Below, piece after piece: positions 1-12,926 of a stretch of 50,039 nt of DNA; position 1 is the stretch's first letter, and the number at the start of each line of letters is the position of its first letter. The stretch is taken from contig VFZU01000034.1 of the NCBI GenBank assembly GCA_016870995.1, positions 1 through 50,039 on the forward strand, written 5' to 3'. Origin of the DNA: Acidobacteriota bacterium. Its GTDB lineage: Bacteria; Acidobacteriota; Terriglobia; Bryobacterales; Bryobacteraceae. Under the pieces are notes generated by a model. The model worked only from the letters and a program-made list of their open reading frames with translations. It was not told the origin of the DNA and made no database searches. The position numbers and the translations under genes were made by a program.

Positions 1-3
1 GCC

Positions 4-43
4 GTCAAGGCGACCCTACGGGCAAGCTGCGCTTGGCCTTGAC
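4..43. repeat. Nested inverted repeat at left edge of window
   Basis: The outer arms GTCAAGGC (4-11) and GCCTTGAC (36-43) are perfect complements. Inside them CAAGC (23-27) and GCTTG (31-35) form a second hairpin around TGC. No gene is visible in bases 1-277, so this probably lies in non-coding DNA of the integrated element upstream of its first gene. It could be a terminator-like or protein-binding structure; the function is unknown. Confidence 0.5.
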
Positions 44-277
44 CGCTGCGCGCCTTGGGCAAAGCAACCTTATATCGAGGCGAAGGGCTTAACTGAAGGT
101 CGAGATACTATGAATCCGCTGGACGAAGTTTGGACGTCTTGACAGCACTACGGAGCCTTAGGAATCATCCGCAATTTGCGCGAAACTTAGACTGAGGCCG
201 CCTAGCTCGACGGAGCGAACGCGCGTGAACCTGACGCGCTGGCGGCTACACCAACTCAGGTCATCGGAAAGGAACCG

Positions 278-991
278 ATGCACGCTCGATCCACAGAGAA
301 GGTTGCCTCATTCCGTGGCGCAGAATACGTAGAAAATAACGAACTTCAAGAATGGCAAGCGGAGGTTCTGGAGACGTTTTTTAAGGAATGCCCAAAAGCG
401 TTTGAGGAATTCAAGGGGCATGTATTCCAGGAGTTTCTCGATCTAAAGTCTCTTGCAGATAATTGGCCGGACTTGCAGCCGTTTCGTGACGTGTTTCTGA
501 AGTGGCTTCGGCGATATAGGTTTGACCAGTGCGAATGGATTGTTGATGCTTTACTCGATTCTCTGGGCGACCTCGATCAATTCCCAGAGTTGTTCAAGGA
601 TGAATATCGTGCTGACCGTAATCGAGCGGGATGGCTTGTGACATCAGAACCATTCCGTTTCGAGTTTCGGGGCTTCGAGTTGAACGGGGAATCGCGCGAG
701 AAATATCAAGTCCAACTTGAACAACACCTCAAAGCTGCAATCGAGCAGCACTTCACAAAAGCTCAACAACTGGCCGCAGAGCGTGGATTGAAGGTGGCGA
801 AGGATCGAGATCCTGTTCATTTCAAATGGCTCATCCAATATTTATGTCGCAACTGGACGTATAAGGATATCGGCTCAAAGGGGAGACCTCGCGCAACTGC
901 CGACGCCGTCAGAAAGGCGATCAGGCGACTTGCTGAGGAGCTAGCCATCCCCCTGCCAGAGGCACCCAAGGGCAGGCCACGCGGTTCATAA
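278..991 (+). CDS. Hypothetical protein of the integrated element
   Basis: A 237-residue soluble protein with no signal peptide or membrane segment. The ATG follows an AAAGGA ribosome-binding site. The N-terminal two thirds is rich in acidic and aromatic residues and predicted helices. The C-terminal part is basic (GSKGRPRATADAVRKAIRRL, then KGRPRGS) and looks like a DNA-binding tail or HTH segment with an AT-hook-like GRPR pair. I do not recognise the family. It precedes the AlpA-like and primase genes on the same strand by about 100 bp, so a role in regulating or replicating the element is possible, but that is inference from position. Confidence 0.6.
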   Translation: MHARSTEKVASFRGAEYVENNELQEWQAEVLETFFKECPKAFEEFKGHVFQEFLDLKSLADNWPDLQPFRDVFLKWLRRYRFDQCEWIVDALLDSLGDLDQFPELFKDEYRADRNRAGWLVTSEPFRFEFRGFELNGESREKYQVQLEQHLKAAIEQHFTKAQQLAAERGLKVAKDRDPVHFKWLIQYLCRNWTYKDIGSKGRPRATADAVRKAIRRLAEELAIPLPEAPKGRPRGS

Positions 992-1094
992 TTCGGACTT
1001 TTACGCCACAAGGTTCGCCGTCCTAATTACTCAGCCTACGATCAAATCACGGGAGCGATCAAGAGTTCTCGAATCTGATCCTAAAGGTTGAAAA

Positions 1095-1307
1095 ATGCTG
1101 ACTAGAGTAAACGACTTTTGCCGAAAGCATCCAAACGAATTCGGCACCCCACAGCGAGTTTATACGGCAGTGCGCGAAGGCGTACTACCCATTGGCGTAG
1201 CAGTTCGCCTAGGTCGCAAGATCCTCATTAACGAGACAAAGTATCAGGCGTGGATCGATGCTGGCGGTTCCGCATTGCCGGGCGGATGGCGTCGGGAGGC
1301 TGAATGA
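1095..1307 (+). CDS. AlpA/excisionase-like helix-turn-helix protein
   Basis: A 70-residue protein resembling the MerR-like winged-helix fold of AlpA and Xis proteins. Residues 17-33 (TPQRVYTAVREGVLPIG) match the HTH_17 pattern in which a helix leads to a recognition turn, followed by a beta wing (VRLGRKILINETKY) and a terminal W-I-x-x-G-G. Such proteins activate satellite-phage transcription or direct excision together with the integrase. It overlaps the primase start by 4 nt (ATGA), so the two are translationally coupled. Whether it acts as activator or excisionase cannot be told from sequence. Confidence 0.7.
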   Translation: MLTRVNDFCRKHPNEFGTPQRVYTAVREGVLPIGVAVRLGRKILINETKYQAWIDAGGSALPGGWRREAE

Positions 1308-3547
1308 CAGAGACCTCCATCGCTGAAGTACTCAGGCTCACCAGGCAACCCGCACCCAAAGGGCGGCGCTTCTCGCGCAGTTGGGTTGGAAGTAATGATC
1401 CCAATTGCACCGAAAGCGAAGACGGGACCAAGTTTTTTTGTCACTCAACTGGCACCGGGGGCGATGCGGCAACGCTATACAAAGAAATCACTGGCTGCAG
1501 CATTGGCGAAGCCTTGACCGCGCTAGAGGCGGCGGGCGTTCGGCAACCATCGCAACGCGTAAGCACGCAGAAGCCAGCGAAGCCAAAGGGCGAACCCAAA
1601 CCCGTCGCCTATTACAACTACGAAGACGAAAGCGGAAAGGTTCTCTACCGCGCCGTCCGCAAAGAACCGGGTTACGAGGGACGCGATAAGACCTTCGTCA
1701 TGGAGCGACCCACCGCGCGCGGCGGATGGGCCACTGGCGTCGGGGATATCGAGCGCGTACCGTACCATTTGCCCAGACTGTTAGCCGCTGATCCGAACGA
1801 ACCTGTCTACATCGTCGAGGGCGAAAAAGACGTCTTAACGGTCGAGAGATTGGGATTCGTTGCGACTTGTAAAGCTGGCGGCGCGTCGGGGGCTAACCAG
1901 TTTGCCGAGTGGCTGAATTGCTTCGCGAACCGCGATGTTGTTCTCCTCCCAGACAACGACACGGCGGGCCGGAAATTCTCGGCCGAGGTGGCGGAGATCC
2001 TGCAGCCCATTGCGGCGTCGGTGCGAGTGGTTGCGCTTCCCGGCTTGCTGGAGAAAGGCGACGTGTCCGACTATATAGCGGCTGGCGGTACGCGGGCCGA
2101 GCTTGAGCAGTTGGTGGCTGCAGCGCCGAACTGGGCACCATCAACCGCACTGGCAAAGGTCGAAGAGCCACAAGGCAAAATTGCCGAATTTACCGAGCTA
2201 GACTTCACCGACGCTGGGATAGCGGAGCTAGTGGCGAAGCTTCACGGCGACGGGATACGGCGAGCATTGGACACTGGCGAGTTTCTTGCATTCGACGGGC
2301 GGCGCTGGATTCGCGGCGAGGCGGCTAACAAAATCGTCGAGCGCTTCATTCTGGATGTGGGCCGCGATATCTACGAGCGAGCACCGGGGATGTCTGCCGG
2401 GCTCTCGAAACACGCCATGAAGGCGGGCTGGCGCGTGCAACAAGACCCAGGTACGAAGGCCGTGTTGTCGAGGCTGGCGGCGGTGGAAGCCATCGGTACT
2501 ACGTTCGATACATTCGACACCGACGGCGAGCTTCTCAACGTCGCGAATGGTACGTTGAACCTTCGCACTGGCGAACTTCACCCGCATCGGGCCGGGGACC
2601 TCATAACGCGGCTCATCGACATCCTTTATTCGGCATCGGCACCCGCGCGGGTCTGGGTCAGTACCATCGGCCAGATTTTCGCACCGAATCCCGAGTTGGT
2701 TGAGTATCTTCAGCGAATGGTGGGCTACGCTTCGACGGGCTTAATCCGCGAGCACGTTTTTCACATGCTGATTGGCACAGGGCGCAACGGTAAGAGTCTC
2801 ATCGTGGAGGCATTGGCCGAGGTTTTCGGCGAGTATGGTTTGGCAATCGGGGCCGATACCCTAGCAAGGGCTCATGACCTACAACGGCCGCGTCCTGATG
2901 TGGCGTTAATGCGGGGCAAGCGCTTCGTCTTCAGTCAAGAGGCTAACCGTAACACGCCATTCGATGAGGCTCTGGTTAAGCGTGTGAGCGGCGGCGACAC
3001 AATCTCAGCGCGCGTATTGCACCAGAACCCTATTACATTCCGAAGCACAGCGAAGCTGTTCTTGAGTACAAATCACGCACCGGAAATTAGCGGCACCGAG
3101 ACGGCCATCTGGCGGCGGATGCGGCTGATACCGTTCCGCGTGAGCTTTGCAGGCCGCGAAGACGTGACACTCCCGCAAAGGCTCAAGGCCGAGCGCGAAG
3201 GAATTCTGGCGTGGGTCATCGAGGGAGCGAGGCGCTACTTCGAAATTGGACTTGAGGCGCCGGAAGTTGTAACCGAGGCCACCGACGAATACAGGCGGCA
3301 GTCCGACCAGTTGGGCCGATTCGTCGAGGATCGTCTCATGTTCATCGACGGCGCAACCGTTGCGGCGAAGCGGATTCAGGATGCTTACCGGGCGTGGTGT
3401 GCAGAATCCGGCGAGAGGGAACAACGGTCCGCAGCGTTGTCTGAGTACCTCGCCGCGAAGGGCATCGAAAAGAAGAGAATCACCGAAGGGAATCGTTATT
3501 TGGGCGTCAGTGTGAGGCCAGAAATGGGGGAGCAGGATGAATTTTGA
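1304..3547 (+). CDS. P4-type primase-helicase (TOPRIM + D5/SF3 helicase)
   Basis: A 747-residue multidomain replication protein. Residues about 35-65 look like a degenerate CHC2 zinc region (few Cys remain). Around 168-260 is a TOPRIM domain with EGEKD and the LPDNDTAG acidic motif. Residues about 400-640 are a D5_N/SF3 helicase with Walker A GTGRNGKS at 491-498, an FVFSQEAN Walker-B-like strand and the sensor motif LFLSTNHAP. A winged-helix-like tail (AYRAWCAESGE) follows. Proteins of this type initiate replication of P4-like satellites and some integrative plasmids by opening their own origin and priming it. The inverted repeat immediately downstream is a candidate origin. It starts at an ATGA overlap with the AlpA-like gene. 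Confidence 0.88.
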   Translation: MTETSIAEVLRLTRQPAPKGRRFSRSWVGSNDPNCTESEDGTKFFCHSTGTGGDAATLYKEITGCSIGEALTALEAAGVRQPSQRVSTQKPAKPKGEPKPVAYYNYEDESGKVLYRAVRKEPGYEGRDKTFVMERPTARGGWATGVGDIERVPYHLPRLLAADPNEPVYIVEGEKDVLTVERLGFVATCKAGGASGANQFAEWLNCFANRDVVLLPDNDTAGRKFSAEVAEILQPIAASVRVVALPGLLEKGDVSDYIAAGGTRAELEQLVAAAPNWAPSTALAKVEEPQGKIAEFTELDFTDAGIAELVAKLHGDGIRRALDTGEFLAFDGRRWIRGEAANKIVERFILDVGRDIYERAPGMSAGLSKHAMKAGWRVQQDPGTKAVLSRLAAVEAIGTTFDTFDTDGELLNVANGTLNLRTGELHPHRAGDLITRLIDILYSASAPARVWVSTIGQIFAPNPELVEYLQRMVGYASTGLIREHVFHMLIGTGRNGKSLIVEALAEVFGEYGLAIGADTLARAHDLQRPRPDVALMRGKRFVFSQEANRNTPFDEALVKRVSGGDTISARVLHQNPITFRSTAKLFLSTNHAPEISGTETAIWRRMRLIPFRVSFAGREDVTLPQRLKAEREGILAWVIEGARRYFEIGLEAPEVVTEATDEYRRQSDQLGRFVEDRLMFIDGATVAAKRIQDAYRAWCAESGEREQRSAALSEYLAAKGIEKKRITEGNRYLGVSVRPEMGEQDEF

Positions 3548-3636
3548 TGCACTTTATGTAGGGCATGTACCCTCTCCCACTTATTCCCATAATTCAATTC
3601 CTATACAAACTTGTGAAAGTGCCTACATAGAGTGCA
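3548..3636. repeat. Inverted repeat after primase gene, candidate replication origin
   Basis: The left arm TGCACTTTATGTAGGGCA (3548-3565) faces the right arm TGCCTACATAGAGTGCA (3620-3636). The arms are complementary over about 16 positions, with one mismatch and one extra base. The 54-bp spacer is AT-rich compared with the surroundings. The repeat begins at the primase stop codon. P4 satellites carry a cis replication region near their alpha primase, so an origin is one reading; a strong attenuator or a repressor operator are alternatives. Confidence 0.5.
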
Positions 3637-3742
3637 TAACCAACATTTTCTCCCCATTCAGACAAACTCAAAGGAACTCAACTGCAATGGGTAAAGGAGC
3701 TACGCTTGAGCGGTCGAAAGCGCTAGCTGGGGAGGTGGCCGC

Positions 3743-4021
3743 TTGAACGCGAAGGCCAAAGGCACACGAAACGAACATCGCTCTATGCGCTTGCTCGAAT
3801 CGGCGGGCTACTCCTGCACCCGAGCGGCGGCATCGCTGGGCGCTTGGGACATCGTCGGCATCGGCTCAACTGACGTTGTTCTGGTGCAGGTCAAAACGAA
3901 CGCATGGCCGGGGAGCGTCGAGACGGACACCATGAAGAGCTTCCCCGCACCTGCAAACGCGCGGAAGCTGATCCACCGATGGAGAGACAGGCAACGAATG
4001 CCAGATGTGAGAGAGCTTTGA
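3743..4021 (+). CDS. Minimal PD-(D/E)xK nuclease, Holliday-junction-resolvase-like
   Basis: A 92-residue protein with the archaeal Hjc-like pattern. An N-terminal basic segment KAKGTRNEHR contains E11, then a conserved helix LLESAGYSCTR, then G-A-W-D36-I-V and V-x-V-Q49-V-K51 forming the metal site. It ends with HRWRDRQRMPDVREL. The family is small and soluble and is often carried by phages, where it resolves or nicks branched DNA. The TTG start is chosen because GGGGAGG lies 7 nt upstream at 3730-3736; no in-frame ATG fits as well. It sits between the primase and integrase genes, consistent with processing of replication or integration intermediates. The true substrate is unknown. Confidence 0.7.
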   Translation: MNAKAKGTRNEHRSMRLLESAGYSCTRAAASLGAWDIVGIGSTDVVLVQVKTNAWPGSVETDTMKSFPAPANARKLIHRWRDRQRMPDVREL

Positions 4022-4337
4022 TGGTCCTTGGCATCGCCAGAGAGCGACTTTTGGGCATCGCGGCGGGCGGATGGATACATAGGCTGGGCAGCTTATGCAA
4101 TGCACCTGCGTTCCATTGTGCGCGAAGGCGGGGCATCTGCAAGGGTGTCCCTGCCAGCGCTGGAAAGTTCACGACCCTCCGGTGGGAACCGCGCGATGAA
4201 GCCGGAAAACGCCGCCGCAGTTACATAGACTTCCCCTCAATCGGTTAGGGGTGTGAGGATTCTCTAGGGATGCGAAGCCTTTACCACTTGTGCAAGCTCA
4301 TGTATTCGTAACCAAAATAGGCAATTCGATTAGAGGC
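4022..4337. other. Stretch without a supported gene
   Basis: Short open frames are present (for example 4028-4228) but none has a convincing start site or recognisable product. The DNA may be a decayed gene of the element or spacer between the nuclease and the integrase operon. Confidence 0.4.
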
Positions 4338-4366
4338 TTGACATCGGTGGGGAGTGGCGGTATCGT
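4338..4366 (+). promoter_or_regulatory. Sigma70-type promoter of the integrase operon
   Basis: A perfect TTGACA (4338-4343) is separated by 17 bp from TATCGT (4361-4366). About 240 nt of leader follow before the first start codon at 4613. The leader contains several small hairpins, for example TGCCC-aatc-GGGCA near 4466-4480 and GGTG-CACC near 4380, so post-transcriptional control is possible. Confidence 0.6.
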
Positions 4367-4612
4367 GACGGGCGTGGCTGGTGTTACTAGCACCGAGCCA
4401 CTACCCTAAACCAATCCGCGAGGTAACCGCGAAATGGCCTTTAGCTATTCTCCCATTCACCCTGCCCAATCGGGCAAGCATACCCCACAAGTTTTCAGCC
4501 TCAGCAACCGCACCACACGCGGCTAGGCGACCCGCTTCTCACGTCCTGCCGCACAGCACTCGGACCGGGCGTGGCGGCGCATATCAACCCAGACACGAAA
4601 AAGGAGAACCTC

Positions 4613-4858
4613 ATGAAGCCCACATTGAGCACCGCATTAGGCAGGCTCGAAGCCGACCTGGCTAGCGAACACACATCACCCGAGGCGGAATTTATTCAGT
4701 GCGTCTTGAGCCTATACGACAGTGGCTTGCTCGACCCTGCAAGGGCTGAGCTTGCGCTTCAAGACTGGCGCGATGAACTGGCCGTGATGCAGCACCACGT
4801 CAACGCAGCGGCAAGGTGCCAGCCTGAAATGCTTGCCAGCGCACTGGAGGCCGTTTAA
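4613..4858 (+). CDS. Small hypothetical protein coupled to integrase
   Basis: An 81-residue soluble, acidic, helical protein. The ATG at 4613 is preferred over an upstream GTG at 4571 because AAGGAG lies 6 nt before it at 4601-4606. Its stop overlaps the integrase start (TAATG), so the two are translated together. No domain is recognised. Position suggests a directionality or regulatory partner of the integrase, which is only inference. Confidence 0.65.
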   Translation: MKPTLSTALGRLEADLASEHTSPEAEFIQCVLSLYDSGLLDPARAELALQDWRDELAVMQHHVNAAARCQPEMLASALEAV

Positions 4859-5985
4859 TGGCCGGGCAAATTGTCAACAGGGGCGAGCGTACATGGCTAG
4901 TTCGCGTATTCGTCGGCAGGGATGGCAACGGCAAACGCTGCTACCAAAACCGGACGATTCACGGCGCGCGGCGGGACGCTGAAAAGGCGTTGGCCGACAT
5001 GCTCACCAAGCGAAGCCTAGGGCCGCAACTCATCGACATAGACCGCGTACTCGTCAGTGAATTGCTGGATGACTTGGAGCGCGACTATCGGCTCAATGGC
5101 AAGGATGCCAAATGGTGCAACGAGAAATGCAGGTTGCATCTTCGGCCATTCTTCGGGGCGATGCGGGCGGCGCGAGTTACGTCTGCCACCATTGCGAATT
5201 ATTGCGACACGCGGCTAGAGGCGGGCGCGGCGCTGGCGACGATCAACAGGGAGTTGAGTCTGCTCAAGCGGTCCTTCAATTTGGCGGCGCGGGCTACTCC
5301 GGCAAAGGTTCATGCGGTGCCGCATATCAAGTTGTTTCGGGAATCTAACATAAGGGTGGGTTTCTTTGAGCATGGTGAATACCTCGCGATGCGGGCGGCG
5401 CTGCCAGACCACTTGAAACCTGTGCTTGTCGTTGGCTACTACACCGGATGCCGTCGAGGGGAAATTCTCTCGATGCGGTGGGAGCAAGTAGACTTGATGG
5501 CGGGCTGTATCCGCCTTGAGGTCAACACCACGAAAAACGGCGAGGCCCGCGTTATCCACTTGGCACCCGAGGCGCTAGAAGTGCTGAAGCTGCAAAGGGA
5601 ACGCACCTTACAGGCGCACCCTGGCTGCCCTTGGGTATTCCACTACAACGGCGACAAGCTGGATTGGTTCTACAAATCGTGGAATGAAGCCTGCAAGCGT
5701 GCTGGGCTGGTGGATGAGGGCGGGAAACCTACCAAGCTCTTCCATGACCTTCGCAGATCCGCCGTGCGCAATTTAGTGCGGGCGGGTACTCCCGAATCTG
5801 TTGCAATGCGGATAAGCGGCCACAAATCACGAAGCGTTTTTGAACGGTACAACGTGGTCTCCGAAGCCGATATCAGGCAGGGGGCGGCGCGGCTGGCGGA
5901 ATACCTTCAGGGCGTCGAGCGGCACACAGCGGAGCAGGAGCGGCACACTATAGGCACACAAGGCCAGTTGGAGATGGTCCAATAG
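4858..5985 (+). CDS. int: Tyrosine recombinase/phage integrase
   Basis: A 375-residue integrase of the lambda type. It has an N-terminal arm-binding strand region, a SAM-like core-binding domain at about 70-160, and a catalytic domain from about 170. Visible active-site residues are R199 (YTGCRRGE), K in TTKNGEAR, H296 and R299 (HDLRRS), H322 (ISGHKS) and the nucleophile Y331 (FERYN). It is expected to integrate and excise the element between attP and the chromosomal tRNA gene. The gene reads toward the 3' end of the tRNA at 6033-6108, the usual arrangement for tRNA-targeting islands. The C-terminal coding region contains three GGCACAC repeats that may be arm-type binding sites. Confidence 0.93.
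   Translation: MAGQIVNRGERTWLVRVFVGRDGNGKRCYQNRTIHGARRDAEKALADMLTKRSLGPQLIDIDRVLVSELLDDLERDYRLNGKDAKWCNEKCRLHLRPFFGAMRAARVTSATIANYCDTRLEAGAALATINRELSLLKRSFNLAARATPAKVHAVPHIKLFRESNIRVGFFEHGEYLAMRAALPDHLKPVLVVGYYTGCRRGEILSMRWEQVDLMAGCIRLEVNTTKNGEARVIHLAPEALEVLKLQRERTLQAHPGCPWVFHYNGDKLDWFYKSWNEACKRAGLVDEGGKPTKLFHDLRRSAVRNLVRAGTPESVAMRISGHKSRSVFERYNVVSEADIRQGAARLAEYLQGVERHTAEQERHTIGTQGQLEMVQ
5921..5959. repeat. GGCACAC direct repeats next to attachment site
   Basis: GGCACAC occurs at 5921-5927, 5942-5948 and 5953-5959, with spacings of 21 and 11 bp, about two and one helical turns. They lie inside the last codons of the integrase gene and about 75-110 bp from the tRNA 3' end. Face-of-helix spacing near an att site is typical of integrase or Xis arm sites. 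The same heptamer at the same 11-bp spacing occurs at 47854-47871 by the second integrase. Confidence 0.45.
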
Positions 5986-6032
5986 AGGGCCGCTGAAGGC
6001 TGGCAAGCAATTGCATGGATAGGATTTATGTG

Positions 6033-6108
6033 TGGTGGGCCCTGTTGGATTCGAACCAACAACCAACGGATTATGAGTCCGCTGCACTAACCGTTGTGCT
6101 AAGGGCCC
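6033..6108 (-). tRNA. tRNA with CAT anticodon, probably tRNA-Ile2 (ileX-like) or tRNA-Met
   Basis: The minus strand folds as a perfect cloverleaf: acceptor GGGCCCT/AGGGCCC, D stem GCAC/GTGC, anticodon stem CGGA/TCCG around loop CTCATAA (anticodon CAT at 6075-6073), T stem GTTGG/CCAAC with TTCGAAT loop, and encoded CCA at 6035-6033. The overall sequence, especially the GGGCCCTTAGC start and ACTCATAAT loop, resembles E. coli ileX, whose C34 is modified to lysidine to read AUA. Elongator Met cannot be excluded by eye. It is intact and is the likely integration target of the element on its 3' side. Confidence 0.92.
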
Positions 6109-6145
6109 TCGCTCTCAAATTGTCGCAACAATCCCCACCCGAAAG

Positions 6146-7231
6146 CTACTTCCCCCGCTGCGCCGCACTCTGAAACGGTGTCTCCAACTTCCCAATCCCC
6201 TCGATCTCAATCGTCACCATATCTCCCGCCTTCAAAAACTCCTGCCGCTCCATCCCCGTCCCCGACGGCGTCCCCGTCGCAATCACATCCCCCGGATACA
6301 GCGTCAGAATCGACGTCAGATACATCAGCATGTGATGCTCCTTCCACAATAGCTCCGCCGTCGTGCCATCCTGCTTCACCACCCCATTCACCCGCGTCAC
6401 AATCTTCAGCCGGTCATAATTCGGCAGAAACTCCTTCGGCACAATCACGGGCCCGAAGGGAGCTCCGCGATCCGTGCTCTTGCCCTCAAACCAGTTCGCT
6501 CCGGGGAACATATTCTGCTCACGCCGCCGCCCGCCACGATCGCTCAAATCGAACAGAATGCTATACCCGAACACCGCATCGTGCGAGTTCTCTTTCGTCA
6601 GTTGGTAAGAAGTCTTCCCCATCACGATCGCCATCTCACCTTCCCAGTCCACCCGCCCACGACCTTCCGCGATGAAATACGGCGAGCCGGGATCAATGAT
6701 GCAAGACCGCGGCGACTTGGCAAAAAATATTGGCGCATCGCGGTCCGGATCGATCAGCGCAGCCGCAGCCGCGTTGAACCCACCGCCACCGCCGCCCTTG
6801 GCCGCCGCCGCTGACATCGGCCTCGCGCCCATCCCCTCGGCATGCGCCCGATAATTCGCCGCCGCGGCCAGCAGGTTCCACGGATACTTCACCGGCGCCA
6901 GATACTTCACCTTCGTCGATTCATGAGCAAACGCCGGCTTGCCTTCACGCTTCAGATAATTCGCGATCTGATACAGCCTGCCCCGCACGGAAGGATACTG
7001 TTCGATCAGATCCCGCATCTCCCCCGGAAACTTCACCGCCTTAAGTTTTGCGGCCCGCGTAACATAGGCATTCGCGGTCGCGATTTCAACAATCACCCGA
7101 TCCTGATCGAGCAACATTGCGAGCACTGGCCCCTTGCCACCCACTTCAATCGTCGCCAGTTTGAAAGGGGTCTCCGGCGTCTCTGGCACAGCCGCCATCA
7201 ACGCCGCGCTCAACATCAAGATCGCATTCAT
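6146..7231 (-). CDS. Fumarylacetoacetate hydrolase (FAH) family protein, probably exported
   Basis: A 361-residue protein with the FAH C-terminal fold. The divalent-metal site is visible as the acidic DWEGEMAIVMGK strand and FEGKSTDRGAPFGP, followed by the closing GTPSGTG loop. The family cleaves C-C bonds or decarboxylates/hydrates beta-keto acids. I start at ATG 7231 rather than 7264 because the encoded N terminus MNAILMLSAALMAAVPE is a Sec-type signal peptide. Export is unusual for this mostly cytosolic family. An Ala/Gly-rich insert (six Gly in a row) separates the N-terminal part from the catalytic core. The substrate cannot be predicted. It is transcribed toward the tRNA. Confidence 0.85.
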   Translation of the reverse strand: MNAILMLSAALMAAVPETPETPFKLATIEVGGKGPVLAMLLDQDRVIVEIATANAYVTRAAKLKAVKFPGEMRDLIEQYPSVRGRLYQIANYLKREGKPAFAHESTKVKYLAPVKYPWNLLAAAANYRAHAEGMGARPMSAAAAKGGGGGGFNAAAAALIDPDRDAPIFFAKSPRSCIIDPGSPYFIAEGRGRVDWEGEMAIVMGKTSYQLTKENSHDAVFGYSILFDLSDRGGRRREQNMFPGANWFEGKSTDRGAPFGPVIVPKEFLPNYDRLKIVTRVNGVVKQDGTTAELLWKEHHMLMYLTSILTLYPGDVIATGTPSGTGMERQEFLKAGDMVTIEIEGIGKLETPFQSAAQRGK

Positions 7232-7273
7232 AGCTGCCAGTTTACTGAAAGCCAATCCACGCAATCCGTCAAA

Positions 7274-8911
7274 TCAGGCGTGAATCCCCGGCGCCTCATG
7301 CCCCAGAGCTTCGACATACTCGATGTAGCTCCCCGGGTACAGCCGCGGCTCCCGCTCCTGACCCGTCTCCCCACCCAACTCCAGCACTCGCGAAGCCAGC
7401 CCACGCAAGAACATGCGGTCGTGCGACACAAAGATCATCGTTCCTTCGAAGTCCTTCAGCGCCTCCACCAGCATTTCCTTCGTCGCTAGATCGAGGTGGT
7501 TCGTGGGCTCGTCGAGCACCAGAAAATTCGGTGGATGATACAGCATCCTCGCCATCGCCAGCCGCGACTTCTCGCCCCCCGACAACGACCGGATCTTCTT
7601 GTCGGACTCTTCACCCGAAAACTGAAAAGCCCCCGCCAGCGTCCGCAACGACCCAATTGCATCCTTTGGAAAATCCTTCTGCAACTGCTCAATCACGGTC
7701 AAATCCGGGTCCAGAATATCCAGTGCCTGCTGCGCGAAGTACCCCATCGAAAGGCTCGCTCCCAGCTTCACAATCCCGCGGTCCGGCTCACTCGCCCCCG
7801 CAATAATCTTCAACAGCGTGCTCTTCCCCGCGCCATTGCGCCCCATCACCGCCCATCGCTCCCCACGCCGGATCGTGAAGTTGAATCCCTGATAGATCAC
7901 CCTCTGCCCGTACGCCTTATCCATGCCTTCCACAACAGCCACCAGATCCCCGCTCCGCGGTGGCACCCGGAAATCAAACTTCACCACCTGCCGCTTCTTC
8001 GGCAATTCGATCTTCTCGATCTTGTCTAGCGCCTTGATGCGGCTCTGCACCTGCGCCGCCTTCGCCGCATGCGTCTTAAACCTCTCGATAAACCGCTGCT
8101 CCTTGGCCAGCATCGCCTGCTGCCGCGCAAACGCCGCCTGCTGATTCGTCTCTCGAATCGCCCGCTCTCGCTCGTAGAAATCGTAGTTCCCCGAGTAAGT
8201 AATGATCTCGCCCTCGTCGATTTCAATGATCTTGTTCACGATCCGATTCATAAACTCCCGGTCGTGCGACGTCATCAACAACGTCCCCTCATACTCTTTC
8301 AAGAACTGTTCGAGCCACACGATCGATTCGATATCCAAGTGGTTCGTCGGTTCGTCCATCAGCAATACATCGGGCCGCCCCAGCAACACCCGCGCCAGTG
8401 CCACGCGCATCTTCCACCCACCCGATAGCGCCCCCACATCTCCGTCCACCTGATCGTCGGCAAATCCCAGCCCCGCCAACACTTCGCGCGCCTGTGCCTC
8501 CAGCGTGTACCCACCCAGGTGCTCATACTCTTCCTGCACCTCGCCAAACCGATCGAGAATCTTGTCCATTTCATCGGCCCGCGCCGGGTCTTCCATCGCA
8601 TTCTGCAACTCAGTCAGCTCATGATGCAGATCCCCAACACGCCCACTGCCCGCAATCGCTTCATCGATCACCGGCCGACCGGCCATCTCGCCCACATCCT
8701 GGCGAAAATAACCCAGCGTCATCTTCTTCGGAACAGAGATGTCCCCGTCATCCGCCGTTTCCTCGCTCATAATCATGCGGAACAGCGTTGTCTTGCCCGC
8801 TCCATTCGGGCCCACCAGCCCCACCTTCTCGCCAGGGTTTAACTGAAACGACGCCTCGACAAAAATCAACTGCTTGCCGTACTGCTTTTGAATATTGGAA
8901 AAAGAGATCAT
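7274..8911 (-). CDS. ABC-F family ATPase (translation-associated, Uup/EttA-like)
   Basis: A 545-residue soluble protein with two ABC domains in tandem and no membrane segments. Domain 1 has Walker A GPNGAGKT (34-41), signature LSGGW (162-166) and DEPTNHLD (186-193). Domain 2 has GRNGAGKS (357-364), LSGGE (443-447) and DEPTNHLD (467-474). The charged linker at about 245-310 is the P-site tRNA interaction motif of ABC-F proteins, which bind the ribosomal E site. The family includes translation factors and antibiotic-resistance proteins; the absence of a long C-terminal extension and of a drug-resistance context favours housekeeping. The neighbours on the same strand are not obviously related. 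Confidence 0.92.
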   Translation of the reverse strand: MISFSNIQKQYGKQLIFVEASFQLNPGEKVGLVGPNGAGKTTLFRMIMSEETADDGDISVPKKMTLGYFRQDVGEMAGRPVIDEAIAGSGRVGDLHHELTELQNAMEDPARADEMDKILDRFGEVQEEYEHLGGYTLEAQAREVLAGLGFADDQVDGDVGALSGGWKMRVALARVLLGRPDVLLMDEPTNHLDIESIVWLEQFLKEYEGTLLMTSHDREFMNRIVNKIIEIDEGEIITYSGNYDFYERERAIRETNQQAAFARQQAMLAKEQRFIERFKTHAAKAAQVQSRIKALDKIEKIELPKKRQVVKFDFRVPPRSGDLVAVVEGMDKAYGQRVIYQGFNFTIRRGERWAVMGRNGAGKSTLLKIIAGASEPDRGIVKLGASLSMGYFAQQALDILDPDLTVIEQLQKDFPKDAIGSLRTLAGAFQFSGEESDKKIRSLSGGEKSRLAMARMLYHPPNFLVLDEPTNHLDLATKEMLVEALKDFEGTMIFVSHDRMFLRGLASRVLELGGETGQEREPRLYPGSYIEYVEALGHEAPGIHA

Positions 8912-8939
8912 CCGCTCTCTTAAGCTAGCATCCCCGCTG

Positions 8940-9881
8940 CTATTTCTGGCCGATTTCCCTGACCTTCATCCACGCAAAGGTGAGTGCCGAATAGCCCAGA
9001 TAAAGCCAATGCAGCGGCACCGCTCTCAACGCAAACCAGAGTCCTCGTTTTCTCACGAGAAACCAGTGCCAATCCCCTCGCAATCCCGTCGCCGCCAACA
9101 GCAACCCCAACCCCTCCACCCGCCAGCACAACAAGGCACCGCTCAAGACCAACGCCGCACACACCCGGTCTCGCCAGCGTGTATTCAAATCATTCCGCAG
9201 GCCCTTCCGCGACTGCATCAACTCAATCCAGGGGATCGCCCTGCCAAGCACGTCCGTCCTCACCATACTCCGCAACGTCCAATACTTGCGGTGCTTCACC
9301 TGTATGGCTGGATCCAACTCGATCTTCCCTCCGGCGTCGCTCAGCCGCAGCCCCAGGTCCACATCTTCGAGCCATCTCCGTGCAGGGTCGAATCCACCAG
9401 CCTTCTCAAACGCAGCCCGGCTCATCGCCCCGCATCCCGTCCAGAAGGTAATGGCCACTCTGTCTCCGGTCTGGTGCGTATAGTGATGAAACAGATTGCG
9501 GAATTCCGAAACCAGCGTTTTCACATAGGGCTCATCGTCATAAGACCCCATCACCGCGTCCACATCGCCTTGCTCCACCCGCGCCACCAGTTGCTCCACC
9601 GCTCCGGCATGCACTTCAACATCCGCGTCGAAGAACACCAGCACGCTTCCGCTTGATTCCGCCACCGCCCGGTTCCGTGCTGCCGCCGGCCCTTCGTTCT
9701 GAAGATTGCGAAACACTCGCGCTCCAGCCCGCTCGGCGATCTTGCCAGTTCCATCGCTCGATCCGTCGTCCACCAGCACAACCTCTCCACCCTCTGGCCA
9801 ACTCGCCACGATCGAACCAACCGCCGCCTCCACATCGTTTGCCGCATCTTTGGCGGCAATGATCACGCTATATCGTGGCAT
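8940..9881 (-). CDS. Family 2 glycosyltransferase, membrane-anchored
   Basis: A 313-residue GT-A fold protein. The nucleotide-sugar site is VLVDDGSSDGT (DDG at 38-40), the metal-binding DxD is FFDADVEV (85-87), and RWLEDVDLGLRL is the acceptor-side ED motif. Two hydrophobic segments near the C terminus (about 240-265 and 285-305) likely anchor it at the inner membrane. It would transfer a sugar to a lipid-linked or polysaccharide acceptor. Its start overlaps the end of the flavoprotein gene by 14 nt, so the two form an operon. Confidence 0.88.
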   Translation of the reverse strand: MPRYSVIIAAKDAANDVEAAVGSIVASWPEGGEVVLVDDGSSDGTGKIAERAGARVFRNLQNEGPAAARNRAVAESSGSVLVFFDADVEVHAGAVEQLVARVEQGDVDAVMGSYDDEPYVKTLVSEFRNLFHHYTHQTGDRVAITFWTGCGAMSRAAFEKAGGFDPARRWLEDVDLGLRLSDAGGKIELDPAIQVKHRKYWTLRSMVRTDVLGRAIPWIELMQSRKGLRNDLNTRWRDRVCAALVLSGALLCWRVEGLGLLLAATGLRGDWHWFLVRKRGLWFALRAVPLHWLYLGYSALTFAWMKVREIGQK

Positions 9882-11358
9882 TCACCTTCTCGGGCGTCGA
9901 TGGCTGCATTGCTTCCATCGAGTCGATTTCTTCCTGGCTCAAATGAAACCCATCTTCGTGATAGTGCTCGTCAGCGTTCACATGCCAGAGATCATGCTTT
10001 CCCAGTTCCATGATGTTCCGCGATGCCAGCACGCCCGTCAGCATCGAGTGATCCTGATTGTTGTACCGGTGCATGCCGTTGCGACCGACACACTGCAGAT
10101 TGCTCGCCTCTTCCCGCAAAAACCGCTTCACCGCATCCACCGCTACCGCGTAGTTGTCGTCATAGATCGGGTACGCTTTCGGCTCCCGGATCACGCAGCC
10201 ATCCTCAAAGTCTCCCTTTTTGGCCAGACCGAGCTTCACCACCTCCGCCCTTGCCAGCGAGATCAACTCTTTGTCCGACATCGACCACAGAGCATCCCCT
10301 TCAAACACGAAATACTCCATCCCAAGGCAAGTCGAGGTTTCATTCGGTACCATCTCAGGGCTCCAGTTCCTGAAGTTCTGAATCCGCCCCACCTTTACTC
10401 CCTCGTCATGCACATAAATCCAGTTATCAGCAAATGGGTTCGCTACCTTCAAAATCAACGCAACGGTCAAGAAGTCCAGGTAGCGCAGCTTTTGCACCGC
10501 ATTCAAATACTCAGGCCCTGCTGGCTCCAGACTTTCTACCAACGTTCGCATCGGCATGGAACTAATAAAGTGCTCTCCGCGCCAGGTCTTCCCGCCAGCA
10601 ACCACTGCGTTCACTTTGCCGCCACCCCACTCGATGGCGGTAACGTCGGCGTTGTACTCCACGCCACCCACCATCTCTGCCGCCTTTTCCCACATCATCC
10701 CGGGGCCCAGCCTTGGATACTCGAAGCTGTCAATCAGGGTCTTCAAACCAGGTCCTTTGGCTCCTGGAATCATCTTTGCCAGCACAGACCAGATCAAGGC
10801 CGGTATCGAAAGACCACGAATGCGCTGTGCCGCCCACTCCGCACCAATCTCCGTGCACTTCATGCCCCACACTTTTTCTGTATAGGTCTTGAAGAATCTG
10901 CGGTACAACCGCCTCCCAAAACGATTGATCAGCCAGCCCTCAAGATCCCTTTCATCTTTGGCCGGAAACAACTGCGCTTTGATGTAAGACAGAAGACTCA
11001 GCGTCGATTCGAAGATGCCCAGCTTAAACACCGTTTCCAGTGGCTCGAGCGGATAAGAATAAAAAACGCCGCCGTAATAAATGCGCGACAGCTGAGGCCG
11101 CACCAGCATATCGTTGCCCAGGATCTCCCGCCACATCCGCTTCACTAACGCTACTTTGGTAAAAAACCGGTGTCCCCCGATGTCGAACAAGAATCCTCGA
11201 TACTCGACCGTACGAGACAACCCACCCGCTTGCATTCCCTTTTCCAACACAACGGAAGAAAAGCCATGCCGCATCAATTCATAAGCCGCGGACAACCCAG
11301 CCGGCCCTGCACCAATAATCACTGTTTTGACAGACGTCCCCTTTACTTCCTGCTTCAA
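9868..11358 (-). CDS. FAD-dependent oxidoreductase, UDP-galactopyranose mutase/protoporphyrinogen-oxidase-like
   Basis: About 496 residues. An N-terminal Rossmann fold VIIGAGPAGLSAAYEL binds FAD, followed by the second dinucleotide stretch (EKGMQAGGLSRT, then DIGGHRFF). The GGLSRT...GGHRFF pattern is typical of the amine-oxidase/GLF-like flavoproteins found in polysaccharide clusters. I prefer a TTG start at 11358, preceded by GGAGGG at proper spacing, over the far upstream ATG at 11403; this puts the Rossmann strand near the N terminus as usual. Downstream overlap with the GT2 gene and the surrounding glycosyltransferases suggest sugar-nucleotide or lipid-linked sugar modification. The exact reaction is unknown. 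Confidence 0.82.
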   Translation of the reverse strand: MKQEVKGTSVKTVIIGAGPAGLSAAYELMRHGFSSVVLEKGMQAGGLSRTVEYRGFLFDIGGHRFFTKVALVKRMWREILGNDMLVRPQLSRIYYGGVFYSYPLEPLETVFKLGIFESTLSLLSYIKAQLFPAKDERDLEGWLINRFGRRLYRRFFKTYTEKVWGMKCTEIGAEWAAQRIRGLSIPALIWSVLAKMIPGAKGPGLKTLIDSFEYPRLGPGMMWEKAAEMVGGVEYNADVTAIEWGGGKVNAVVAGGKTWRGEHFISSMPMRTLVESLEPAGPEYLNAVQKLRYLDFLTVALILKVANPFADNWIYVHDEGVKVGRIQNFRNWSPEMVPNETSTCLGMEYFVFEGDALWSMSDKELISLARAEVVKLGLAKKGDFEDGCVIREPKAYPIYDDNYAVAVDAVKRFLREEASNLQCVGRNGMHRYNNQDHSMLTGVLASRNIMELGKHDLWHVNADEHYHEDGFHLSQEEIDSMEAMQPSTPEKVNATI

Positions 11359-11402
11359 CAGTCCCTCCAGACGTGAAACTATTAGGATAAGCGCAACTGC
11401 CA

Positions 11403-12926
11403 ATGCAATCCAAGTTAGTTGTTTACTGCCTTTGTCTGTTTGCTGCCGTGATTCTAGTACCTGTGTACTGGCTCGGTGGCTTTCATGCGGAATTCGCAGG
11501 CGCGGATGAGGCTTCTCACCTCGTCAGCGGCATCATGGTCTATCAGTATCTTGCTCAAGGTCTGCTGCAAGGTCAATCTCCGATGGCATTTGCTCGGGAC
11601 TACTACGAACACTACCCAAGGGTTGCCATCGGCCATTGGCCGCCAGTCTTCTACTTTGTGCAGGCCTTCTGGTTTTTGATTGTTGGACTGTCGCGAACTT
11701 CCGTGATGCTGCTATCGGTCTTGATTACCGCTGCTCTTGGTACTGCAACGGTTTGGTTTTGTCGTCTTCACAGCGTCAATCTGCCAGCTGCACTTGCTGC
11801 CGGTCTCCTCGTTGTTCTCTCGCCGCAAGCACTGGCTTCAACCATTGAGTTTGGTTCCGACCCTTTGGTAGCGCTTCTCGTTTTTCTCGCTGCATTCGCC
11901 GCCTGTGAATGGTTTCAATCGCAATCAACACGATCCGGTCTGCTCTTCGCTCTCCTTGCCGCTACTGCCTGCCTCACCAAAGGCAACGCATTTCCCTTGC
12001 TGCTCATGCCCTTCTTTCTTCTTGTGTTTCGACGCGATTTGGGCTTGTTGCGGCCGATGCTTCTGATCCTTCTGTTGGTCCTGCCTTGGTACTGGATTCA
12101 GCGAGACCTGATGGTCCATGAAGTGGTTCCCGGCGGAACCTCTGACCTCCCCGGCAGGGTTCAGTACTCCGCCATCAAGAATGCGCGCCTCATCGCGCTA
12201 GCCGCTGGCCCCATCGTCTTCCTGTTTGCCATTTCTTCTTGGCGGCAAATCAAATCCCTCTCGACCCTTCCGATGATCCTCTTGCCGTTGACTCATTGGC
12301 TCTTTCTCAGCTTTATTTCGCCTCATGCCGAAACACGTTTGATGATGGTGGTCATTCCGATTTTCTGCTTCTTGGCCGCAGTACTGATCAAGTCATGGAA
12401 GCCGCTGCCACTGATCGGATTCTGTTTGCTTTCCCTTACCTTTGCTCATCTTCTTCAGCCACTCAGACCCAAACCGCAAACTGGGTTTGTCCCTGCAGTT
12501 GCGGCGACCCTGAGCATGCCATGTCCGGTCTCCTTAATCACCTCCAACTTCTTTGGCGAAGGTCCATGGCTTGGGGAGATCGCCATCCACCAGCCATCCC
12601 CACATCTTGTTGTCCGCAGGGGTTCCAAACTGTTCCAAAGCTCCAGATGGATGGGTGAAGATTACCGGGTACTCGCAGAATCTGCAGCAGCCGTAACCCA
12701 GATTCTTGATACTCAGCACATCGATTGCCTGATTGAGCACACCCGAGCGAGCGTCGCTCCGCTTCCCTATAAGGGCTTTATGGACACCGCACTGGCGAAT
12801 TGGCAGCCCACTCAACTCACCAAGGAGATTCGCTTGTACCGCAGGCCGGCTGGCAATCCAGCTAACGCAGCAATCCTTCCAGTCGCAGATAATCCGCCGT
12901 CGACTTCACAATCTCCCTCGCGCTAA
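11403..12926 (+). CDS. GT39/ArnT-like integral-membrane glycosyltransferase
   Basis: A 507-residue polytopic membrane protein. The first transmembrane helix (residues 3-22) is followed by the acidic loop FAGADEASH, the D-E catalytic signature of GT-C transferases that use polyprenyl-phosphate sugars. About nine further hydrophobic helices follow up to residue 360, then a soluble periplasmic C-terminal domain. It would move a sugar from a polyprenyl carrier onto lipid or protein outside the inner membrane. It is divergent from the flavoprotein operon (only 44 bp between starts), and its 3' end overlaps the convergent epimerase gene by 65 bp. Confidence 0.82.
   Translation: MQSKLVVYCLCLFAAVILVPVYWLGGFHAEFAGADEASHLVSGIMVYQYLAQGLLQGQSPMAFARDYYEHYPRVAIGHWPPVFYFVQAFWFLIVGLSRTSVMLLSVLITAALGTATVWFCRLHSVNLPAALAAGLLVVLSPQALASTIEFGSDPLVALLVFLAAFAACEWFQSQSTRSGLLFALLAATACLTKGNAFPLLLMPFFLLVFRRDLGLLRPMLLILLLVLPWYWIQRDLMVHEVVPGGTSDLPGRVQYSAIKNARLIALAAGPIVFLFAISSWRQIKSLSTLPMILLPLTHWLFLSFISPHAETRLMMVVIPIFCFLAAVLIKSWKPLPLIGFCLLSLTFAHLLQPLRPKPQTGFVPAVAATLSMPCPVSLITSNFFGEGPWLGEIAIHQPSPHLVVRRGSKLFQSSRWMGEDYRVLAESAAAVTQILDTQHIDCLIEHTRASVAPLPYKGFMDTALANWQPTQLTKEIRLYRRPAGNPANAAILPVADNPPSTSQSPSR

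What the first reader, a model, noticed from the sequence alone, without database searches (positions are those of the whole stretch)
1..6032. P4-satellite-like integrated element with its own primase, nuclease and integrase
Primase-helicase, AlpA-like protein, minimal resolvase-like nuclease and integrase lie together next to a tRNA, with no capsid, tail or conjugation gene visible. This is the plan of a phage satellite or small integrative plasmid, little described in acidobacteria. The left half is outside the window, so cargo such as defence genes may exist there.
Basis: partly seen in the sequence, partly recalled or inferred. Interest (0 to 1): 0.7.

Follow-up and report, generated by a model that had tools for sequence, protein, structure and literature searches.

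The report
Phage-parasite element with shared packaging site
The start of this soil-bacterium contig carries a small virus-parasite element, one of at least seven such elements or remnants in the same genome, and six copies share a short DNA site that looks like the cut site used to load DNA into virus particles.

Summary
An AlpA-like protein, an intact P4-type primase-helicase, a small Hjc-like nuclease and an intact tyrosine integrase lie at 1095-5985, facing the 3' end of tRNA-Met (6033-6108). Position 1 is the contig end, inside the right end of an IS3-family insertion sequence. The genome holds seven tRNA-adjacent integrases (five related, two distant) plus further fragments. Siblings carry P27 terminase small subunit (three), HNH (two, one a fragment) and HK97 prohead protease (two), with no capsid, portal or large-terminase gene noticed. 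I read these as phage satellites, PICI/PICMI-like rather than true P4. Main new result: a 13-bp core, AACCGCGCGATGA, lies 53-58 bp before terS in three siblings and persists in the window, where terS is gone. Six of its seven exact copies in 5.7 Mb are in these elements; left and right arms switch partners at its edges. In four chosen P27 phage records the ends lie at the same place, between an endonuclease gene and terS; a fifth record differs. I read it as a cos site: the window copy would be packaged by terminase supplied in trans. Not shown: packaging, a helper, or the window's attL (not found). The window copy may be defective.

The parts
1..145 (+). right end of an IS3-family insertion sequence (transposase C-terminus plus terminal repeat); the contig breaks inside it; probably inserted into the satellite
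   Evidence: 19 places in the own genome match this end, 18 at contig ends, with a common border near base 144 in the 18 read to it; fuller copies with an rve-type transposase in L068 and L090
193..245 (.). block shared with siblings, marking the start of the element core; cargo lies to its left in two relatives
   Evidence: 94% to C152 3206-3258, 96% (28 bp) to C148, start of an 80.5% match to G002:C8
278..991 (+). ORF1, conserved unknown protein upstream of alpA; shorter than its C148 relative
   Evidence: 47% to C148, 63% to the open part of the G002 copy; PADLOC PDC-S02 E 3.8e-4 only
1095..1307 (+). AlpA/excisionase-like HTH protein
   Evidence: phrog_9668 E 2.8e-4; 57%, 53% and 94% identical homologues in C135, C83 and G002:C8
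1304..3547 (+). TOPRIM primase fused to D5/SF3 helicase, intact, 747 aa
   Evidence: TIGR01613 254.7 bits, phrog_6088 E 3.7e-134
3743..4021 (+). small Hjc/PD-(D/E)XK-like nuclease, 92 aa
4097..4186 (.). left arm of the candidate cos site, type L1 (shared with C135 and C83)
   Evidence: 38/40 ungapped identity to C135 and to C83; 10-14/40 to the other three
4187..4199 (+). 13-bp core AACCGCGCGATGA, candidate cosN
   Evidence: 6 of 7 exact copies in the own genome are in six elements; arms switch partners at its edges
4200..4250 (.). right arm, type R1 (shared with C148; weaker with C162)
   Evidence: 91% over 45 bp to C148, 76% to C162, gapped
4251..4464 (.). place where terS stands in C83; terS absent here, flanking sequence kept
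   Evidence: 4336-4464 is 74% to C83 3060-3191, at the end of and just behind its terS
4571..4858 (+). small protein translationally coupled to int (TAATG overlap)
   Evidence: 78% homologue before int in C6; weaker ones in C152 (26%) and C83 (24%)
4858..5985 (+). tyrosine integrase, intact, 375 aa
   Evidence: PF00589 75.6 bits; four homologues at 45-79% in the own genome, each beside a tRNA gene
6033..6108 (-). tRNA-Met(CAT), target gene; its 3' end is the attR side
   Evidence: two relatives show 37- and 48-bp tRNA 3'-end repeats as attL/attR

Best explanation
This is one copy of a family of phage satellites (PICI/PICMI-like) in a Bryobacter-type acidobacterium. Inferred cycle: AlpA switches the element on when a helper phage arrives; the integrase, helped by the small coupled protein, excises it from tRNA-Met; the TOPRIM-D5 primase-helicase replicates it to concatemers; terminase cuts the concatemers at the 13-bp core (a cos site) and loads them into helper capsids. 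Siblings bring their own P27 TerS, some also HNH or a prohead protease. The window copy has no terS and keeps only the candidate cos site, so it would have to use TerS from the helper or from a sibling. Shown by sequence: gene set, tRNA target, sibling family, conserved core, arm switching, absence of terS where siblings have it. Inferred: induction, cutting, packaging, trans use of terminase. The window copy itself may be immobile, since an IS cuts its left end and attL was not found.
For: Gene set and open reading frames. Siblings: terS in C148, C83 and C6, HNH in C83 (fragment in C162), prohead protease in C148 and C135, in contigs with related integrase, primase or AlpA genes. C83 is continuous from AlpA to tRNA-Pro and, besides int (375 aa), its ORF list there has nothing longer than 215 aa, too short for large terminase or portal. 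att repeats in C152 (37 bp) and G002:C8 (48 bp). Core: 6 of 7 exact genome copies lie in elements, the seventh inside what reads by eye as an ABC-F gene. Core end to terS start is 58, 57 and 53 bp in C83, C148 and C6. In four linear P27-TerS phage records, picked because terS lies near the record start, the last gene is an endonuclease (HNH in three, plain 'endonuclease' in one) ending 51-91 bp before the record end. Six sibling pairs share one arm and not the other; in five the identical run stops exactly at the core's edge, in the sixth two bases beyond. Protease 78%/77% DNA-identical over 406/376 bp to that of a tailed-phage contig with P27-type TerS-TerL-portal-protease-capsid, read by eye. 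Precedents: EcCICFT073 has no TerS and is packaged through cos (PMC6092414, passages); cos SaPIs (PMC5052747, passages).
Against: No second copy of the tRNA-Met 3' end (23-mer, up to 2 mismatches) in the own genome. No relative of the window's primase or integrase, or of the terS of C83 or C6, among viral contigs by the pattern scan, which finds close relatives only. Core 16-mers in viral contigs hit 27 stretches, none recognisable as a terS-side cos (flanks and frames of all 27 printed, ORFs listed around one, L173). A fifth P27-type phage record, BgVeeders33 (circular), has 'holin' and not HNH before its terS. C148 has no HNH between protease and terS. The right arm of C135 is only 13 bases long (contig end). 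The AlpA call is weak by Pfam. The C152 element lacks the core.
Confidence: 0.66

Rival explanations
1. Decayed prophages: these are remnants of several HK97-like cos prophages that lost structural genes one by one, and the window copy is a further-decayed remnant.
For: HNH, terS and prohead protease are phage genes; the protease is 77-78% DNA-identical to that of a tailed phage; C162 has a nuclease/HNH fusion remnant and an integrase split over two frames; the window has no terS and no attL; G002:C8 has truncated copies.
Against: A similar compact order (AlpA, replication genes, nuclease/HNH/protease, core, terS, int) recurs across contigs with open int and primase frames; no large terminase, portal, capsid or tail gene was noticed in the element stretches (ORFs read by eye, only part of them scanned against libraries); P4-type TOPRIM-D5 primase; C152 is a 7.2 kb element with both att sites.
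Confidence: 0.18
2. Integrative plasmid-like element with a P4-type primase that moves without phage; terS and protease in siblings are incidental captures.
For: P4-family primases occur on many plasmids (479 plasmid records match); the window itself has no packaging gene.
Against: Three siblings keep terS at 53-58 bp from a conserved core; two keep a full-length prohead protease; the order resembles cos phage ends. No relaxase or partition family was matched in the window ORFs scanned.
Confidence: 0.1
3. The 13-bp core is not cos but a crossover site of another recombinase, or a regulatory site before terS, at which modules are exchanged.
For: Arm switching at a short core is also what site-specific recombination gives; the core is kept in the window and C162, where no terS remains; one P27 phage record has no HNH there.
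Against: Position between HNH and terS resembles the ends of four linear P27 phage records; I noticed no second recombinase gene common to the elements; a terS promoter would not be expected to stay where terS is gone.
Confidence: 0.25

Closest known systems
PICI EcCICFT073 (Escherichia coli, cos-packaged, no TerS)
   Same: int, AlpA, primase-replication gene; no TerS; carries cos and depends on helper terminase (PMC6092414, passages read)
   Different: not compared by sequence here; tRNA-Met target in the window; siblings with P27 TerS, HNH and prohead protease; acidobacterial host; induction and packaging untested here
cos SaPIs (SaPIbov4/5) with phi12/phiSLT helpers
   Same: cos site carried by the island; most of the operon with terS replaced (PMC5052747, passages); a Peeveelvirus record shows the layout endonuclease | end | terS
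   Different: operon-I-like genes were not searched for here; different replication module
PICMI (Vibrionaceae)
   Same: int, AlpA-like, DUF5906 primase; small gene coupled to int like iolg; no packaging gene in the minimal copy (PMC10803314, passages)
   Different: integrates in tRNA genes, not beside fis; siblings have terS/HNH/protease; candidate cos
P4 family
   Same: P4-family primase-helicase, AlpA/Vis-like protein; P4 itself carries cos (PMC8628076, passages); tRNA target and lack of terS in P4 are recalled
   Different: no psu, sid, delta or epsilon match
capsid-forming PICI (cfPICI)
   Same: C148 and C135 have AlpA, primase and prohead protease, C148 also TerS; these are listed as cfPICI signature genes in PMC10448857 (passages)
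   Different: no capsid, portal or large terminase noticed

Membership tests
PICI (phage-inducible chromosomal island) | integrase with a specific attachment site | tested here: inconclusive
   Integrase and tRNA 3' end present; attL of the window copy not found; attL/attR found in relatives C152 and G002:C8
PICI (phage-inducible chromosomal island) | AlpA-type regulator and pri-rep replication gene | tested here: met
   Excisionase/AlpA-like by PHROGs, though below the Pfam cut-off; primase TIGR01613 above cut-off
PICI (phage-inducible chromosomal island) | redirected packaging by own TerS or by a cos/pac site | tested here: inconclusive
   Candidate cos in the window; TerS in three siblings; cutting not shown
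PICI (phage-inducible chromosomal island) | no structural, lysis or large-terminase genes | tested here: inconclusive
   None matched above cut-off among the eight window ORFs scanned; none long enough in C83 from AlpA to tRNA; the window's left end is missing
PICI (phage-inducible chromosomal island) | helper-induced excision, transfer in virions, helper interference | not testable with these tools
   needs a culture and a phage
PICMI | co-located int, alpA and DUF5906 primase | tested here: inconclusive
   PF00589 75.6 and PF19263 36.8 bits, both above cut-off; alpA by HTH_17 only 14.4 bits, below the cut-off of 27, supported by phrog_9668 E 2.8e-4
PICMI | integration next to fis | tested here: not met
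   integrated at tRNA-Met
P4-like satellite | psu, sid, delta, epsilon | tested here: not met
   no such family matched among the window ORFs scanned; the left end is missing
P4-like satellite | alpha-type primase-helicase | tested here: met
   TIGR01613 254.7 bits
capsid-forming PICI | own capsid and head-tail genes | tested here: not met
   only prohead protease and TerS, in siblings; two of the sibling contigs stop at or before terS
IS3 family (window 1-145) | rve-type OrfB with terminal inverted repeats | tested here: met
   Right end in the window; fuller copies in L068 and L090, left ends at 19 contig ends; family named by reading the sequence, no database run
IS3 family (window 1-145) | short target duplication at this insertion | tested here: not met
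   none of the 19 left ends read ends in GCA (17, two)

The most novel reading that the evidence does not exclude
One bacterial genome holds a pool of at least six satellites that share one cos core and exchange their packaging arms at it, as expected if cohesive ends of different satellites are joined to each other in the cell. In this pool some members make TerS (and HNH or prohead protease), while others, like the window copy, keep only the cos site and would live off their siblings' terminase: satellites of satellites. The prohead protease without a capsid gene would then be a tool that acts on the helper's capsid.
Probability: 0.2. Interest if true: 0.82.

Novelty: new variant of a known kind. 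Interest (0 to 1): 0.6.

Why it matters
Two searches of the held paper library, for 'phage satellites' with acidobacteria and for satellites and phage-inducible chromosomal islands with acidobacteria, returned nothing, so this would be a satellite family in a common soil phylum where prophages, but not satellites, are discussed (listing only). The natural series in one genome (terS + HNH, terS + protease, core only) makes a concrete question testable: can satellites share packaging genes in trans? The switching of arms at a 13-bp core suggests that cohesive-end joining could drive satellite mosaicism.

Tried and rejected
Left half: I used the IS left end to list 19 contig ends and looked for a matching target duplication (GCA) and for a tRNA 3' copy; neither was found. 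Synteny: in two of the seven same-genus genomes searched (G006, G001) tRNA-Met sits beside guaA (named by eye); in the own genome guaA (C28) is followed by what looks like a toxin-antitoxin pair, so synteny gave no attL. C81 has a Vsr-like nuclease beside an IS left end but no matching duplication; not claimed. True P4 rejected (psu/sid/delta/epsilon not matched). Full prophage rejected for the part that is sequenced. Viral contigs: primase, integrase and two terS proteins gave nothing; core 16-mers gave 27 stretches, none recognisable as a cos. HNH and protease gave 113 and 107 relatives, of which 80 each were kept; the core with up to one mismatch was found in two of those 160 loci, L340 and L341, near the same place in both and not followed up. 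ORF1 structure prediction failed on the server and was not rerun. Reading window 3904-4248 as a gene was rejected: no family match and a one-base gap between the window and C148 in that stretch.
Full report
OBSERVATION. In order on the plus strand: ORF1 (278-991), AlpA-like (1095-1307), primase-helicase (1304-3547), Hjc-like nuclease (3743-4021), a small ORF (4571-4858) and integrase (4858-5985), then tRNA-Met on the other strand (6033-6108). The primase is TIGR01613 (254.7 bits, cut-off 108.7). It has a TOPRIM part and a D5/DUF5906 helicase part, and is open over 747 codons. The integrase is open over 375 codons with the usual R..HxxR..Y residues (read by eye). The AlpA call is weak by Pfam (14.4 bits, cut-off 27) and better by PHROGs (E 2.8e-4). 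The nuclease is below the Pfam Hjc cut-off in the window but above it in its C148 sibling.

THE LEFT EDGE. The window begins at the first base of contig C34. Its first 144-145 bases recur at 19 places in the same genome (window included), 18 of them at contig ends; 18 of the 19 could be read to the same border. A fuller copy in same-genus genome G004 (L068) and one in a Verrucomicrobia MAG (L090) show an rve-type transposase that ends inside this stretch, and terminal repeats. So it is the right end of an IS3-family element (named by reading, no IS database was run). The other IS end lies at 19 contig ends (19 of 21 matches). None of these 19 has the 3-base GCA that would pair with the window, so the left partner is unknown. 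The tRNA-Met 3' end (23-mer, up to two mismatches) has no second copy in the assembly. The attL of this copy is therefore missing from the assembly or lost from the genome.

SIBLINGS. The own genome (5.72 Mb, 215 contigs, 98.99% complete) holds four more integrases related to the window's at 45-79% identity (C49, C83, C6, C158) and two more distant ones (C152; C162, whose integrase reads in two overlapping frames). All seven sit against a tRNA gene: Met, Phe, Pro, Leu-CAG, Leu-TAG, Arg, Thr. C49 and C158 show little of their elements beyond the integrase and the small ORF. C148 and C135 hold the replication side of further copies or of the same ones. C148 has a 78% identical primase, the nuclease, an HK97 prohead protease (115.3 bits, cut-off 21) and a P27 TerS (30.1 bits, cut-off 24.7). 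C135 has AlpA, a primase related to the window's only at one end, and the protease. C83 has AlpA, HNH (38.9 bits, cut-off 21.4), TerS (25.8 bits, cut-off 24.7) and int. C6 has TerS (71.0 bits) and int. C83 is continuous from AlpA to tRNA-Pro over about 4.7 kb; besides int, no ORF there in the list is longer than 215 aa. C152 has both attachment repeats (37 exact bases, 1760 and 8991) around 7.2 kb with a TIR gene (PADLOC TIR-TM E 1.5e-53) at the far end. G002:C8 has 48-base repeats at 7537 and 12366 with a ClpP-like ORF at the far end. In both, the cargo is between attL and the block that the window shows at about 193-245, 1.4 and 1.8 kb. The stretch missing from the window is thus most likely a cargo zone of one to three kilobases (inference).

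THE CANDIDATE COS SITE. Window 4097-4202 is 91% identical to the stretch after the protease in C135; 4122-4199 is 92% identical to the stretch between HNH and TerS in C83; and 4187-4242 is 96% identical to the stretch between protease and TerS in C148. All six elements that have this region share exactly AACCGCGCGATGA. A pattern search of the genome found seven exact copies: these six and one inside what reads by eye as an ABC-F gene; with one mismatch allowed there were 25 hits against 14 for the reversed control pattern. Flanks were compared base by base from the core outwards in all 15 pairs. Window/C135 and window/C83 agree at 38 of 40 positions on the left and at 4-5 of 13 on the right. 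Window/C148 agree at 14 of 40 on the left and 13 of 13 on the right. C135/C6 agree at 12 of 40 on the left and 11 of 13 on the right (C135 ends there). C6/C162 agree at 33 of 40 on the left and 4 of 13 on the right. C135/C83 agree at 36 of 40 on the left and 6 of 13 on the right. C162's right arm is an intermediate relative of the window's and C148's (8 of 13; 76% and 71% gapped over 45 bp). Background for 40 bases is 10 (median of 2000 random pairs, highest 22). In the first five of these pairs the identical run stops at the first base beyond the core; in C135/C83 it runs two bases on. Pairs with neither arm alike (for example C6/C148, C83/C162) still share all 13 core bases. This suggests that the core is under selection and that the two arms have been exchanged at it. 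Six elements of one genome are a small sample.

WHY COS. The core ends 58, 57 and 53 bases before the TerS start in C83, C148 and C6, and begins 154 and 60 bases after HNH in C83 and C162. I looked at five phage records whose TerS resembles that of C6. Four are linear and were picked because TerS lies near the record start, so the TerS position (start at base 56, 57, 19 and 51) is partly selection. The other side was not selected: the last gene is HNH in three and a plain 'endonuclease' in one, ending 51, 72, 91 and 70 bases before the record end (Bunnybear, L-m44, PK5.1, Bridgette). The fifth, BgVeeders33 (circular), has 'holin' before its TerS-like gene. That such linear records open at the cohesive ends is recalled, not tested here, and many records are opened at terS by habit. 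In the window and in C162 TerS is gone but the core and its right side are kept. The closest published parallel is EcCICFT073, which has no TerS, carries cos, and loses transfer when both its cos sites are deleted (PMC6092414, passages). Cos SaPIs carry a phage cos (PMC5052747, passages).

HELPER. None identified. The protease of C148 and C135 is 78% and 77% identical in DNA over 406 and 376 bases to that of a viral contig with P27-type TerS, TerL, portal, protease and capsid, named by eye (L303). This points to exchange with such a phage line. Scans of viral contigs for the window's primase and integrase and for two sibling TerS proteins found nothing; these scans find close relatives only. 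The core in viral contigs gave 27 stretches (4 + 23), none recognisable as a cos beside terS (flanks and frames of all 27 were printed, ORFs listed around one, L173).

MEMBERSHIP. P4 family: primase type met; psu, sid, delta and epsilon not matched. PICMI: int and DUF5906 primase met, AlpA weak, fis site not met; the small gene overlapping int by one base (TAATG) recalls PICMI's iolg (PMC10803314, passages). PICI: sequence features partly met, functional ones untestable. cfPICI: capsid genes not seen. I file it as a PICI/PICMI-like family, not as a member of a named subfamily.

HOST. A same-genus relative, G004, holds a contig that agrees in length (21,943) and in the matched stretch with record JAINDK010000069.1, 'Bryobacter sp. 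CoA8 C33'. So the host is probably a Bryobacter (acidobacterium); this is inference.

WHAT IS NOT SHOWN. Excision, induction, cutting at the core, packaging, and use of terminase in trans. The window copy has an IS at its left edge, no attL in the assembly, no TerS and an ORF1 shorter than that of C148. It may be a fossil with intact int and primase genes.

Noticed in passing
window 1-145; L068; L090: A high-copy IS3-family element breaks the assembly at 37 contig ends (18 right ends, 19 left ends). A full copy with nearly the same right end lies in a MAG labelled Verrucomicrobia (VHDM01000054.1), which is either recent transfer or a mis-binned contig.
   Followed up: partly
L036 (G000:C152) 1760-9027: A 7.2 kb tRNA-Arg element with both attachment repeats, a TIR-TM defence gene, a DnaB-like helicase and a different integrase; shares blocks with the window but has no candidate cos core.
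   Followed up: partly
L153 (G002:C8) 7537-12413: In a same-genus genome, a degraded relative at tRNA-Phe with a third, partial attachment copy inside (10796), as if two elements stood in tandem; a PEP-CTERM-type gene (named by eye) lies between.
   Followed up: no
L029 (C148) 8711-9343; L030 (C135) 11300-11872: HK97 prohead protease with no capsid gene in sight, 77-78% DNA-identical to a tailed phage's protease; a possible tool against the helper capsid.
   Followed up: partly
L072 (C162) 6854-7010: Fusion remnant: first 30 residues of the nuclease run into the last 27 of HNH, just before the core.
   Followed up: no
L134 (C81), last 1.1 kb before the IS left end: Vsr-like endonuclease (named by eye) next to a further ORF at an IS left end; a candidate for lost cargo of one of these elements, unproven.
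   Followed up: no
L029 (C148) 135-2356: MazG-like small ORF followed by a DUF2075-type helicase/nuclease (PADLOC PDC-S41 E 1e-18, AbiO/Nhi about 1e-9) left of an IS end; whether it belongs to the satellite is unknown. The names MazG and DUF2075 are by eye.
   Followed up: no
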